Positions 11,644-53,066 of a stretch of 64,000 nucleotides of DNA are shown one piece after another (position 1 is the stretch's first letter; each line of letters begins with the position of its first letter). Under the pieces are notes generated by a model. It did no database searches. It saw nothing but the letters and a program-made list of their open reading frames with translations, and was not told the DNA's origin. The stretch is taken from positions 124,001 through 188,000 of the forward strand of contig JAKTTT010000022.1 in the NCBI GenBank assembly GCA_030581615.1. Reading direction: 5' to 3'. Origin of the DNA: Alloascoidea africana. Taxonomy: Eukaryota > Ascomycota > Alloascoideomycetes > Alloascoideales > Alloascoideaceae. The position numbers and the translations under genes are program-made.

Positions 11644-12407
11644 TTAAAACTTTTTGAACTGTTTGGATTTTCCAGTAGCAGAGGAGACTTTGAGCACATT
11701 GAATCGAACAGTCTTTGAAAGTGGTCTACATTGTCCAACAGTGACCAGATCGCCTTCCTCAACACGGAAAGCAGGTGAAACGTGTGCAGCCAAGTTTTTG
11801 TGTCTCTTCTCGTATCTGTTGTATTTAGGAATATAATGTAGATAATCTCTCCTGATGATTACAGTTCTGTGCATTTTTGTAGAGACGACAACTCCTGACA
11901 GAATTTTTCCACGGATAGAAACCTCTCCAACAAAAGGACACTTTTTGTCAATGTAATGACCACTGATTGCATCTTTAGGAGTTTTGAATCCGAGACCAAC
12001 ATCTTTATACCATCTCTTGGTACGCTTGTTGATTTTGGCTTTTCCGTTCTGGAAAATATGGGGTTGCTACATGAAAAAAGGGTTAGTATTTCTGTTTTCT
12101 AGTGAACAGCGATGGTATGGGAAGGCTGGCGTTTAAAAAGCAATTACAATTCAGTACGATTCGTGCTTAAAAGTGTCGCAAAATTGTTTATTAGCTTTGT
12201 AAAGCAGAACATGAGTTGAATATTAATGTCTTTGCTTTATAATATGGCCGACAATTAAGTTGCAGATACTTTTCAATCAGATCTAGTATTGTGTATCCTG
12301 TTCACCCCTCCATTTTGCACCTTGTTTATCCATTGAATAAAATTTTCAAAAATGATACATGCCTTCTGGAAAGCTCGCTCGGATTGAACCGTTAATTCTG
12401 TAGCCAT
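11644..12407 (-). CDS. RPS11: 40S ribosomal protein S11 (uS17), spliced with a GC-AG intron
   Basis: Ribosomal protein of the small subunit, 155 residues, in two exons: 12407-12363 (45 nt, [15 protein letters not shown]) and 12066-11644 (141 codons, starting [20 protein letters not shown]). The joined protein matches the yeast Rps11 pattern without a gap (AFQK/QPHIFQ), and I recall the S. cerevisiae intron after the same codon. The 296-nt intron (12362-12067) has a perfect TACTAAC branch site at 12082-12088 and acceptor TGTAG. Its donor reads GCATGT instead of GTATGT, so this is a GC-AG intron. No other donor keeps the protein in register. The upstream region carries the Tbf1/Cbf1-like composite at 12521-12540. 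Confidence 0.95.
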
Positions 12408-12520: not shown

Positions 12521-12540
12521 AGCCCTATTTATATCACGTG
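12521..12540. promoter_or_regulatory. Composite Tbf1-like plus Cbf1-like site, RPS11 promoter
   Basis: The bases read AGCCCTATTTATATCACGTG, 114-133 bp upstream of the RPS11 ATG. AGCCCTA fits the Tbf1 core (ARCCCTAA) and TCACGTG the Cbf1 E-box. The same 20-bp layout, 17 of 20 bases identical, lies upstream of RPP1 at 52425-52444. Tbf1 and Cbf1 are known regulators of ribosomal protein genes in Candida albicans. Confidence 0.65.
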
Positions 12541-12632: not shown

Positions 12633-13673
12633 CAACCATGAAAAGATCCAAGGATCACAATAACACTCCCTAACGGGGAGAAAAAAAACCAAGATAAAAC
12701 AGTCAAACTCCTAGGAGTTTGGTTCGACGAGAGGCTTCGCTTCCAGAAGCAGGCCAACACAACCGCAACAAAGGTCAAACAAGTAACGGCAAAGATTCAG
12801 CAGCTGGCGAAAGTAAGTAGAGGCATAACAGGCGGAGCAGTACTCAGGCAAGGCATGCTTTCTCCCGGGGGCACTCTATGGGATTGAAGCATATGAAAAG
12901 CATGTCACAAAAAAACAAATATCAGTCCTGACAACACAGCAGAATCAATGCTTAAGACTAGTCCTAGGAATGATGAAGGCCACACCAACAGAAATGCTCA
13001 ACATTGAAAGCAGGTGTCCACCAATTAACCATATGATCGACGAAACTTTAAGCAGAAGGATGGGCCGTTTCTTCACGAACACGGCACCAAACAACCCGGT
13101 CCCAACAGTGACGAACCAAATTATGAGAAACAAAGCCATAGATCAAGTATCAAAAGGAATACAGAAAGTCCAGGAATCCACAGGAACCTTAACAGACTCG
13201 ACCATAGAGTAAATATTCCACACATTGATATTTTGCGGGTCATTTTCCTTCATCGTATCCTCCGTCCATGCTGTTGCTTGCAAAGAGTGTTGGAAAAATG
13301 CTTTCTGAAAAAAAATGAAAGAGCAGTGGGGCTCGGAAGGTCTAAGAGAATCAACAATCATCGAACAATGGTGAATTGGTCAACAAAATCCAAAGAACTC
13401 ATACTGGGGAATGCCTTCAGCAAACCGAAATCAGTGGTCTCCGCTTTATCTCAACTCCTGAGTGGAGTAAGCCTGGTAGACATCAAGTACAAAAGAATCC
13501 TCAAAAAGGAACTAGTAGAGTGCGAAAGTAGGTACGAAAGTCCCAGAACTGATCATGAAGTGCGAGATTGCCCAAAGTGGCAGCACCTTCGAGAGAGGTA
13601 CAGGATCAGGCAATCCAGCACTATGAAGGAATTATGGGAAAATTCCGAAACAGAAAACCTAATCGAGGCTTAA
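12633..13673 (+). pseudogene. LINE fragment A: 5'-truncated reverse transcriptase C-terminal half
   Basis: Plus-strand remnant of a non-LTR retrotransposon ORF2. It opens in the late RT/thumb region (KLLGVWFDERLRFQKQA), then reads LYGIEAYEKHVTKKQI, continues with LVLGMMKATPTEMLNIESRCPP (about 12952-13020), and ends with a zinc-knuckle-like tail, C-x10-H-x4-C, followed by PKWQHLRERY. The fragment is broken by at least two frame changes (a G-run near 12865 and a stop near 13210). Truncation at the 5' side is usual for LINE insertions. Clade is uncertain; the tail resembles Tad1/I-like elements. No poly(A) or target duplication is evident. Confidence 0.8.
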
Positions 13674-26246: not shown

Positions 26247-26328
26247 GGCACTATGGCCGAGCGGTTAAGGCGAAAGATTAGAAATCTTTTGGGATTTTCC
26301 CGCGCAGGTTCGAGTCCTGCTGGTGTCG
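26247..26328 (+). tRNA. tRNA-Ser (anticodon AGA), copy 1
   Basis: An 82-nt type II tRNA with no intron. The acceptor stem GGCACTA pairs with TGGTGTC (two G-U pairs) and G is the discriminator. The D-arm GCCGAGCGGTTAAGGC, anticodon loop TTAGAAA (anticodon AGA), long variable arm TGGGATTTTCCCG and T-loop GGTTCGAGTCC are all present. It resembles yeast tRNA-Ser(AGA) closely. A TTTTT run follows at 26332-26336, suitable as a Pol III terminator. It is identical to the copy at 51688-51769. The CCA end is not encoded. Confidence 0.97.
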
Positions 26329-51687: not shown

Positions 51688-51769
51688 GGCACTATGGCCG
51701 AGCGGTTAAGGCGAAAGATTAGAAATCTTTTGGGATTTTCCCGCGCAGGTTCGAGTCCTGCTGGTGTCG
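51688..51769 (+). tRNA. tRNA-Ser (anticodon AGA), copy 2
   Basis: Identical over all 82 nt to the copy at 26247-26328, with the same immediate 5' bases (AAAATTA) but different sequence beyond. Anticodon AGA, long variable arm, no intron. A TTTCTTTTT tract follows at 51771-51779 as terminator. The pogo-like element ends 25 bp upstream. Confidence 0.97.
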
Positions 51770-52666
51770 GTTTCTTTTTAGCTTTTATTTTTGCTCTAAT
51801 CATCTTTACCTCAATCTGAGGATAGTAAATTTTTGAATAATGAGGGCTTTACGCATTTGTCCTGATAAATACTTTGATCGGTCAGCTCCACCGTTCCATA
51901 ATATGTTGACACTCAAGGGAACAATAGTAAACCACTCAAAGTAGCTGAGCCAATTGATATAGTGAACTTGAATATGGAAATGCAATTTCCTATACGAATC
52001 TCTAGACCACTGGGCGGATCTATTTTGAAAGAGTTCGTCTCTCATTGGAACTTTAAGATAGCTGCTCCTGATGAACTAATAATCTGGAAAGACAATTGTA
52101 TATGAGCACAAATGAGGGAAGGAGGGGTGGGTCTAACAATTGATGTCAGAATGATGTAGGAGAAACTCAATTTCAATCTCCAATAGTTAAATAGATCAAG
52201 GTTCTCTTGAGCAGTTATACGTTATCCCTTCAAAGAGCGTTATTAACACATGGTTTCTAAATGATAGAGAAGTTACACAGATGCCTCTATAAGCTTTGTA
52301 ACCGAAGGCACTTTGCTCACGCTCATCTCTTATTTCACCAACAATCCAATACATTTGCAAATCATCTCTAATCAGATTAGTTCAACACAACCATTGATGT
52401 TACCCTGCTTTTTCGTGGATTGGCAGCCCTAACAATATCACGTGCACAAGAAAAGTTGAGCTTCATAGTTTTACCCATTTAGGAAACTGAGTGGGACTGA
52501 GATTACTGTATTAGGCGATGATTTGTGAAAGACATATCAAACACCCATTCAAGTTTCTATACTTTCAGCACCTGTAATTCAATACAGTTTCTTGATTCAA
52601 GGAATAGTCTGCTTCTAATCTAGCTTAAATCGTGATTATTCTAATCAACAATCTCAACAAGAAAAC
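51770..52666. other. Gap between tRNA-Ser and RPP1, with the RPP1 promoter
   Basis: About 900 bp. The first 570 bases hold nothing recognisable. The last 240 bases contain the composite site at 52425-52444 and an A/C-rich leader before the RPP1 ATG. Confidence 0.45.
52425..52444. promoter_or_regulatory. Composite Tbf1-like plus Cbf1-like site, RPP1 promoter
   Basis: The bases read AGCCCTAACAATATCACGTG, 223-242 bp upstream of the RPP1 ATG. It has the same boxes and spacing as the site at 12521-12540 upstream of RPS11; only the three bases after AGCCCTA differ. AGCCCTAA is a full Tbf1 consensus and TCACGTG a Cbf1 core. Relative to the gene, its orientation is opposite to that at RPS11. Confidence 0.7.
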
Positions 52667-53066
52667 ATGTCTGCCGAAAATATTGAGTCCTCTTTGGCCT
52701 ATGCCTCTCTTATTTTGACCGATGCTGATGTCGAGGTCACCTCCGAGAAATTGCAAGCCTTGACCAAGGCCGCCAATGTTCACATTGACAGCGTATGGAT
52801 TAACAAGATTATAATGTTGTATTACCACATTTATTAATGATTCTGTGTTTTTTTAGATTTGGGCTGATATTTTCGCCAAGGCTTTGGAAGGCAAGAACCT
52901 CAAAGACCTCCTTTTCAACATCTCTGGTGGCCCAGCTGTTGCTGCCCCAGGTGCAGGTGCCGCCGGCGCTGCTGGTGACGATGCCGCTGCCGCTGCTGAA
53001 GAGGAAGCCGAGGAGTCTGAGAAGGAAGAGTCTGATGACGATATGGGATTCGGACTGTTCGACTAA
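52667..53066 (+). CDS. RPP1: 60S acidic ribosomal protein P1
   Basis: A 111-residue stalk protein of the large ribosomal subunit that, with P2 and P0, recruits elongation factors. Exons are 52667-52792 (42 codons, [20 protein letters not shown] ... NVHIDS) and 52857-53066 ([20 protein letters not shown] ...). The 64-nt intron starts GTATGG, a weak donor, and ends TTTTAG. The joined protein has the helical dimer domain, the Ala/Gly hinge ([20 protein letters not shown]) and the invariant tail [30 protein letters not shown] marks P1 rather than P2. Confidence 0.97.

What the first reader, a model, noticed from the sequence alone, without database searches (positions are those of the whole stretch)
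12521..12540. Same 20-bp Tbf1/Cbf1-like composite upstream of both cytosolic ribosomal protein genes
Upstream of RPS11 (12521-12540) and RPP1 (52425-52444) the + strand reads AGCCCTA, three variable bases, then ATATCACGTG. 17 of 20 bases agree, with identical spacing but opposite orientation relative to the two genes. The boxes fit Tbf1 (ARCCCTAA) and Cbf1 (TCACGTG), known ribosomal protein gene regulators in C. albicans. The fixed spacing suggests joint binding, possibly the main ribosomal regulon module of this yeast.
Basis: partly seen in the sequence, partly recalled or inferred. Interest (0 to 1): 0.7.

Follow-up and report, generated by a model that had tools for sequence, protein, structure and literature searches.

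The report
Paired control sites at ribosomal genes
In this fungus, two short DNA control sequences sit side by side at a nearly constant distance in front of many genes for ribosome parts and at few other places, which points to a two-protein switch that helps to turn those genes on together.

Summary
In detail: both 20-base copies are where stated, 17 of 20 bases agree, and they lie 113 and 222 bases upstream of the RPS11 and RPP1 start codons. It extends genome-wide. AGCCCTA followed within 0-30 bases by CACGTG occurs at 38 distinct places in 23.2 Mb, 28 of them with a gap of exactly 7 or 8. Of those 28, 26 lie upstream of cytosolic ribosomal protein (RP) genes. Of 85 RP genes found by protein alone, 25 carry a near-exact copy within 1.2 kb upstream (about 0.4 expected); among the last 20, located after the motif scan, 7 do. 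"Main module" is too strong: with one mismatch allowed, 11 of 35 RP genes have the composite, 9 of 34 have an inverted repeat TAGGGC-N3/4-GCCCTA, and 17 of 35 have either. The genome encodes one Tbf1-like, two Cbf1-like and two Rap1-like genes. Tbf1/Cbf1 control of RP genes is known from Candida albicans; the rigid half-site/E-box spacing and the N5 rather than N6 inverted repeat look like a variant. Binding and cooperativity are inferred, not shown.

The parts
12521..12540 (+). composite element, gap-7 class: AGCCCTA (Tbf1-type half-site, 12521-12527) + TTTATAT + CACGTG (Cbf1-type E-box, 12535-12540); 113 bases upstream of the RPS11 ATG; motif strand opposite to the gene (the majority arrangement, E-box distal)
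52425..52444 (+). composite element, gap-7 class: AGCCCTA (52425-52431) + ACAATAT + CACGTG (52439-52444); 222 bases upstream of the RPP1 ATG; same strand as the gene (the minority arrangement)
12363..12407 (-). RPS11 exon 1 ([15 protein letters not shown])
   Evidence: translation; tblastn
12067..12362 (-). RPS11 intron, GC-AG type (gcatgt ... tactaac ... catgtag)
   Evidence: read; splice sites inferred from protein continuity
11644..12066 (-). RPS11 exon 2 with stop codon
   Evidence: tblastn 77.8% identity over 144 aa
52667..52792 (+). RPP1 exon 1
   Evidence: splice site inferred
52857..53066 (+). RPP1 exon 2 with stop codon
   Evidence: splice site inferred

Best explanation
The 20-21 bp composite is a cis-regulatory module of cytosolic ribosomal protein genes. 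The Tbf1 homologue most likely binds AGCCCTA as a telobox half-site through its Myb domain, and a Cbf1 homologue (bHLH dimer) binds CACGTG. The two site centres are 13-14 bp apart, a rigid geometry that suggests contact or cooperative loading on DNA. The complex would then keep the promoter open and recruit the RP co-activators (Fhl1-Ifh1, TFIID), as Tbf1 does with Fhl1-Ifh1 in C. albicans. The element occurs in either orientation but mostly has the E-box on the side away from the gene. It serves a subset of RP genes; others carry an inverted repeat of the same half-site (TAGGGC-N3-GCCCTA), some carry both, and about half of those sampled carry neither. Shown: sequence, spacing, association with RP genes, and presence of genes for the candidate factors. 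Inferred: binding, cooperativity and activation.
For: (1) Spacing: 38 distinct places of AGCCCTA-N0..30-CACGTG, 12 at gap 7 and 16 at gap 8; P about 1e-25 against uniform gaps. (2) Gene association: 26 of the 28 gap-7/8 places lie upstream of RP genes, against 2 of the 10 other distinct places, 2 of which (C55, C113) I did not examine. (3) The association falls as the motif degrades: GCCCTA+CACGTG 34 of 40 at RP genes, GCCCTA+other CAYRTG 4 of 9, GCCCT(not A)+CACGTG 7 of 17, both degenerate 1 of 33 (lower bounds, since not every neighbour was examined). (4) From genes to motif: 25 of 85 RP genes located by protein alone have it within 1.2 kb upstream, about 0.44 expected. For the first 65 genes: 18 upstream, against 0 in the stretch 1.2-2.4 kb downstream and 2 in a stretch 5 kb upstream. 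(5) Later test: of 20 RP genes located after the motif scan, 7 had a hit from that scan upstream. (6) Factors: a Tbf1-like protein with a TRF domain (E 3.4e-57) and a telobox matching solved TBF1 (E 4.7e-27), and two Cbf1-like genes. (7) Precedent: Tbf1, assisted by Cbf1 at some loci, runs RP genes in C. albicans (PMC2834713, passages and section 11).
Against: With one mismatch allowed the composite is still absent from 24 of the 35 RP genes, so it is not required. In 14 of 34 RP families with two located copies only one copy has it, and in 16 neither has it. C. albicans Tbf1 is reported to need a palindrome, whereas 16 of 25 composites match a second half-site in three of six positions or fewer. 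The Pfam Myb score of the Tbf1-like protein (22.1 bits) is just under Pfam's cut-off of 24.4. The genome also has two Rap1-like genes. No binding or expression data exist here, other bHLH or Myb proteins were not excluded, and no related species could be compared.
Confidence: 0.8

Rival explanations
1. One or both boxes are read by other factors: the E-box by another bHLH protein (Pho4-, Ino2/4- or Tye7-like), or AGCCCTA by another telobox or Myb protein.
For: CACGTG is a general bHLH core (recalled). The half-site is GCCCTA rather than the CCCTAA of the C. albicans palindrome. In the gap-7 class only 6 of 12 composites have the T in front of CACGTG that Cbf1 prefers (preference recalled). Other bHLH genes were not searched for.
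Against: In the gap-8 class T precedes CACGTG in 12 of 14 and ATAT is favoured (10 to 12 of 14 per position), which fits the Cbf1 flank as I recall it. The telobox query found one gene with E below 0.001. Tbf1/Cbf1 is the documented pair at RP genes in C. albicans.
Confidence: 0.13
2. The two sites bind independently and the spacing reflects descent: copies of an ancestral promoter in duplicated RP genes.
For: 34 of the 43 RP families located by protein have two copies and 4 have three.
Against: The element occurs in 36 different RP families, counting the three better motif classes; I saw no sign that these promoters are copies of one another, though I did not align them. Spacer sequences vary, and both orientations occur (33 opposite, 12 same). 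Only 4 of 34 two-copy families have it in both copies.
Confidence: 0.05
3. The spacer is a TATA box: in RPS11 the minus strand reads TATAAATA across the spacer, so the element is a core promoter with flanking sites.
For: TATAAATA is present at 12526-12533 on the minus strand, and the gap-8 class favours ATAT before CACGTG.
Against: RPP1's spacer (ACAATAT) is no TATA box, the gap-7 class has no fixed spacer sequence, both orientations occur, and the distance to the first aligned codon varies from 109 to 654 bases.
Confidence: 0.03

Closest known systems
Candida albicans Tbf1/Cbf1 ribosomal protein regulon (Hogues 2008, not seen, recalled; Lavoie 2010, PMC2834713, passages and section 11 seen)
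   Same: RP genes carry Tbf1-type CCCTA sites and Cbf1-type CACGTG sites; genes for both factors are present; Cbf1 assists at only some loci.
   Different: Here a single half-site stands at a fixed 7-8 bp from the E-box. The passages that I saw describe a strict TTAGGG-N6-CCCTAA palindrome for C. albicans Tbf1, and average distances between factor peaks, but no fixed Tbf1-Cbf1 site spacing. The inverted repeat here mostly has N5 (TAGGG-N5-CCCTA).
Rap1-Mcm1 fixed-spacing grammar at yeast RP genes (PMC6173580, passages seen)
   Same: Two RP regulators with preferred spacing between their sites, explained by cooperativity; Mcm1 sites near Tbf1 sites in some clades are also mentioned, at varying distances.
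   Different: Different pair of factors; spacing there peaks at 54, 65 and 74 bp, here at 7-8 bp between boxes.
S. cerevisiae Tbf1 sites (PMC2834713, passage)
   Same: Half-sites without a strict palindrome are used.
   Different: There clustered TTAGGG with no orientation or spacing rule, and RP genes are run by Rap1.

Membership tests
C. albicans-type Tbf1/Cbf1 RP regulon | Tbf1-type site enriched upstream of RP genes | tested here: met
   GCCCTA in 16 of 28 RP promoters against 9 of 91 window tiles (these 28 are the genes that no motif hit had already brought in, so the set is depleted of carriers); 34 of 47 against 6 of 59 in a set enriched for carriers
C. albicans-type Tbf1/Cbf1 RP regulon | Cbf1-type site enriched upstream of RP genes | tested here: met
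   CACGTG in 24 of 47 RP promoters (set enriched for carriers) against 1 of 59 tiles; in the depleted set of 28, CACGTG in 5
C. albicans-type Tbf1/Cbf1 RP regulon | Tbf1 and Cbf1 homologues encoded | tested here: met
   one TRF+telobox protein and two bHLH proteins; one of the two Cbf1-like proteins was scanned with Pfam; orthology was not tested with a tree
C. albicans-type Tbf1/Cbf1 RP regulon | Strict TTAGGG-N6-CCCTAA palindrome | tested here: not met
   exact inverted repeats here are TAGGGC-N3-GCCCTA (N5 between TAGGG and CCCTA) at 7 of 9 genome places; 16 of 25 composites match a second half-site in three of six positions or fewer; the exact C. albicans palindrome itself was not searched genome-wide
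C. albicans-type Tbf1/Cbf1 RP regulon | Tbf1 and Cbf1 occupy RP promoters in vivo | not testable with these tools
   needs ChIP
Rap1-type RP promoters of S. cerevisiae | Rap1 site (ACACCCA core, recalled) enriched | tested here: not met
   11 of 47 RP promoters against 8 of 59 tiles, P 0.15; a diverged Rap1 specificity was not tested although two Rap1-like genes exist
S. pombe Homol-D type RP promoters | CAGTCAC[AG] (recalled) enriched | tested here: inconclusive
   9 of 47 against 4 of 59, P 0.052

The most novel reading that the evidence does not exclude
In this lineage Cbf1, docked at a fixed 7-8 bp, takes the place of the second Tbf1 half-site. A heterotypic Tbf1-Cbf1 composite and a homotypic Tbf1 inverted repeat would then be two alternative ways to anchor Tbf1 at RP promoters, and RP gene copies would gain and lose either form freely after duplication. 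The data allow this, but the two forms are not mutually exclusive: the inverted repeat (one mismatch) is in 3 of 10 composite promoters and 6 of 24 others in the 34 promoters read (counted by hand).
Probability: 0.35. Interest if true: 0.68.

Novelty: new variant of a known kind. Interest (0 to 1): 0.5.

Why it matters
Ribosomal protein regulation is a well-studied case of rewiring in yeasts (Tbf1/Cbf1 in C. albicans, Rap1 in S. cerevisiae). A rigid Tbf1-Cbf1 composite in a genome that also encodes Rap1-like proteins would be a cis-level sign of direct cooperation between the two regulators. It gives a precise spacing rule that can be tested by reporter or by structure, and a set of duplicated RP genes in which one copy has the element and the other does not: natural test pairs for what it contributes.

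Tried and rejected
An attempt to name by Pfam the retroelement-like stretch beside RPS11 failed on stop codons and was not repeated. The count of the exact inverted repeat is not above its reversed-pattern control (18 rows against 26); only its spacing and its places argue for it. The organism was not identified; no related genome was held, so conservation between species was not tested.

Rows dropped before counts: the places C63:55313, C43:24908 and C15:121063 (weak, more distant or ambiguous) were left out of the 85 genes, and exon pieces of one gene were merged; two overlapping rows were merged to give 38 places. RPS19 (C86) appears and was counted once. One search scored only 19 of 73 candidates, so the 85 genes are a sample of the RP genes. 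The control tiles are 59 or 91 stretches of this window, not annotated promoters. The 47-promoter set is enriched for motif carriers and the 28 promoters are depleted of them; the 35 genes together are the motif-blind set (34 read in full; RPS5 on C39 is known only from its exact hit).

Full report
OBSERVATION. RPS11 runs on the minus strand: exon 1 ([15 protein letters not shown]) starts at 12407, 113 bases from the element, and an apparent GC-AG intron follows. RPP1 runs on the plus strand from 52667, 222 bases beyond its copy. In the window these are the only two convincing cytosolic RP genes and the only two TCACGTG. The exact 17 specified bases occur twice in the 23.18 Mb genome, both times here. 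The same 17 bases with up to 3 mismatches gave 35 rows against 24 for the reversed pattern, a weak excess; the informative form is the two boxes with a free spacer.

GENOME SCAN. The window belongs to a 138-contig assembly. AGCCCTA followed by 0-30 bases and CACGTG gave 40 rows against 10 for the reversed pattern. They are 38 distinct places, because two pairs of rows share an E-box. Gap lengths: 12 places at 7, 16 at 8, three at 9, two at 18, and one each at 3, 5, 19, 24 and 28 (duplicates merged by hand). With 31 possible gaps, 28 of 38 at two of them has P about 1e-25. The opposite half-site orientation, TAGGGCT-N0..30-CACGTG, gave 19 rows against 11, none at gap 7 or 8. Eight of the 19 have gaps of 15-17, and all eight contain a second GCCCT about 8 bases from the E-box (read by hand), so they are inverted repeat plus E-box.

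WHICH GENES. The two exceptions (C60, C74:84484) show no RP gene in about 1.1 kb on either side. Of the other 10 distinct places two are at RP genes (RPS15 at gap 18; the second RPL12 at gap 19), two (C55, C113) were not examined, and six showed none; the gap-3 place lies by a cytochrome c gene (read from its translation).

FROM GENES TO MOTIF. To avoid choosing by motif, I located RP genes by protein only: 85 genes of 43 families. In one search only 19 of 73 candidates were scored, so this is a sample of the RP genes. GCCCT-N8/9-CAYRTG has 99 genome places against 22 for the control. Of the 85 genes, 25 have one within 1.2 kb upstream, leaving out hits degenerate in both boxes; about 0.44 are expected, counting all 99. 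For the first 65 genes, 18 had a hit upstream, against 0 in the stretch 1.2-2.4 kb downstream and 2 in a stretch 5 kb upstream. The last 20 genes were located after the motif scan: 7 of 20 have a hit (RPL25 twice, RPL37 twice, RPS18, RPS24, RPL32). By motif quality, hits at RP genes are 34 of 40 (GCCCTA+CACGTG), 4 of 9 (GCCCTA with another CAYRTG), 7 of 17 (GCCCT then C, G or T, with CACGTG) and 1 of 33 (both degenerate), all lower bounds. In the three better classes 36 RP families have a carrier.

ANATOMY. The motif strand is opposite to the gene in 33 cases and the same in 12 (P 0.0025; not all sites are independent): the E-box usually lies on the far side. The median distance to the first aligned codon is 412 bases (range 109 to 654); introns can lie in between. 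The gap-8 class has a preferred spacer ending ATAT before CACGTG (11, 10, 11 and 12 of 14 per position); the gap-7 class has no fixed spacer and T before CACGTG in 6 of 12. A second half-site on the left (TAGGGC, at most one mismatch) is present in 5 of 25 held exact composites, about 0.24 expected; 16 of 25 match it in three positions or fewer.

NOT UNIVERSAL. In the 35 genes, the composite with at most one mismatch is in 11. The inverted repeat TAGGGC-N3/4-GCCCTA with at most one mismatch is in 9 of the 34 read in full; 17 of 35 have either and 3 of 34 have both. Background is 0 of 59 window tiles and 0 of 141 shuffles for each (the 35-gene counts are taken by hand from its table, RPS5 on C39 from its exact hit). 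Genome-wide the exact inverted repeat has 9 places, 7 with a spacer of 3; 7 of the 9 lie at RP genes located here, and 2 were not examined. The reversed pattern is at least as frequent (26 rows against 18), so it is the spacing and the places that argue for it. Reb1-like CGGGTAA is mildly enriched (12 of 47 against 4 of 59); Rap1-, Mcm1-, Fhl1- and Abf1-like patterns (all recalled) are not. Of 34 families with two located copies, 4 have the element in both, 14 in one and 16 in neither, which is what independent gain and loss at a rate of 0.29 would give (about 3, 14 and 17).

FACTORS. The genome has one Tbf1-like gene (C4: TRF domain, E 3.4e-57; Pfam Myb 22.1 bits, just under the cut-off of 24.4; telobox matching solved TBF1, E 4.7e-27, and solved telomeric factor trf1, E 1.1e-27), two Cbf1-like genes (C28, C2) and two Rap1-like genes (C46, C16; 40 and 39% identity over about 105 residues).

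LITERATURE. In C. albicans, Tbf1, assisted by Cbf1 at some loci, controls RP genes; Tbf1 is said to need a TTAGGG-N6-CCCTAA palindrome and to bring in Fhl1-Ifh1 (PMC2834713; passages, section 11). PMC6173580 (passages) reports fixed spacing of Mcm1 to Rap1 at RP genes, and Mcm1 sites near Tbf1 and Rrn7 sites in other clades. PMC6510891 (passages) reviews Tbf1/Cbf1 motifs in C. albicans and Y. lipolytica. PMC2897762 (passages) describes a shift from Cbf1 to Reb1 as general factor, and PMC5123246 (passages) the Rap1/Tbf1 substitution. In searches and these passages I saw no description of a fixed 7-8 bp Tbf1-Cbf1 composite. The library lacks most subscription papers, and I have not seen the original C. 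albicans study, so this does not establish that it is unpublished.

CONCLUSION. The element is real, strongly tied to RP genes and spacing-constrained. The most likely mechanism is joint binding of Tbf1 and Cbf1. Its carriers are a sizeable minority of RP genes, not the whole regulon.

Noticed in passing
window 12067-12362 (- strand): The RPS11 intron appears to start with GC (gcatgt) instead of GT and ends tactaac...catgtag, a GC-AG intron in an RP gene (inferred from protein continuity).
   Followed up: partly
window about 12690-13650: Just beyond the RPS11 promoter lies a broken stretch that reads like the 3' part of a LINE-type retroelement (my reading of the sequence; the Pfam attempt failed).
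   Followed up: no
L042 (G000:C17:414818): An AGCCCTA-N3-CACGTG place lies by a cytochrome c gene; Cbf1 is known upstream of respiratory genes (PMC2834713, passage).
   Followed up: no
G000:C33:44453-44488 (L006, L052): A two-sided arrangement AGCCCTA-N9-CACGTG-N7-TAGGGTT shares one E-box between two half-sites, with no RP gene seen nearby.
   Followed up: no
G000 (85 RP genes located): Of 43 RP families located, 34 have two copies and 4 three; Cbf1-like and Rap1-like genes were also found twice while a Tbf1-like gene was found once, which suggests widespread duplication or hybrid origin.
   Followed up: partly
window 26247-26328 and 51688-51769: Two tRNA-Ser(AGA) genes with equal Rfam scores, one about 650 bases upstream of the RPP1 element.
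   Followed up: no
47 RP promoters: CGGGTAA (Reb1-like, recalled) is in 12 of 47 RP promoters against 4 of 59 tiles, a possible further RP element.
   Followed up: partly
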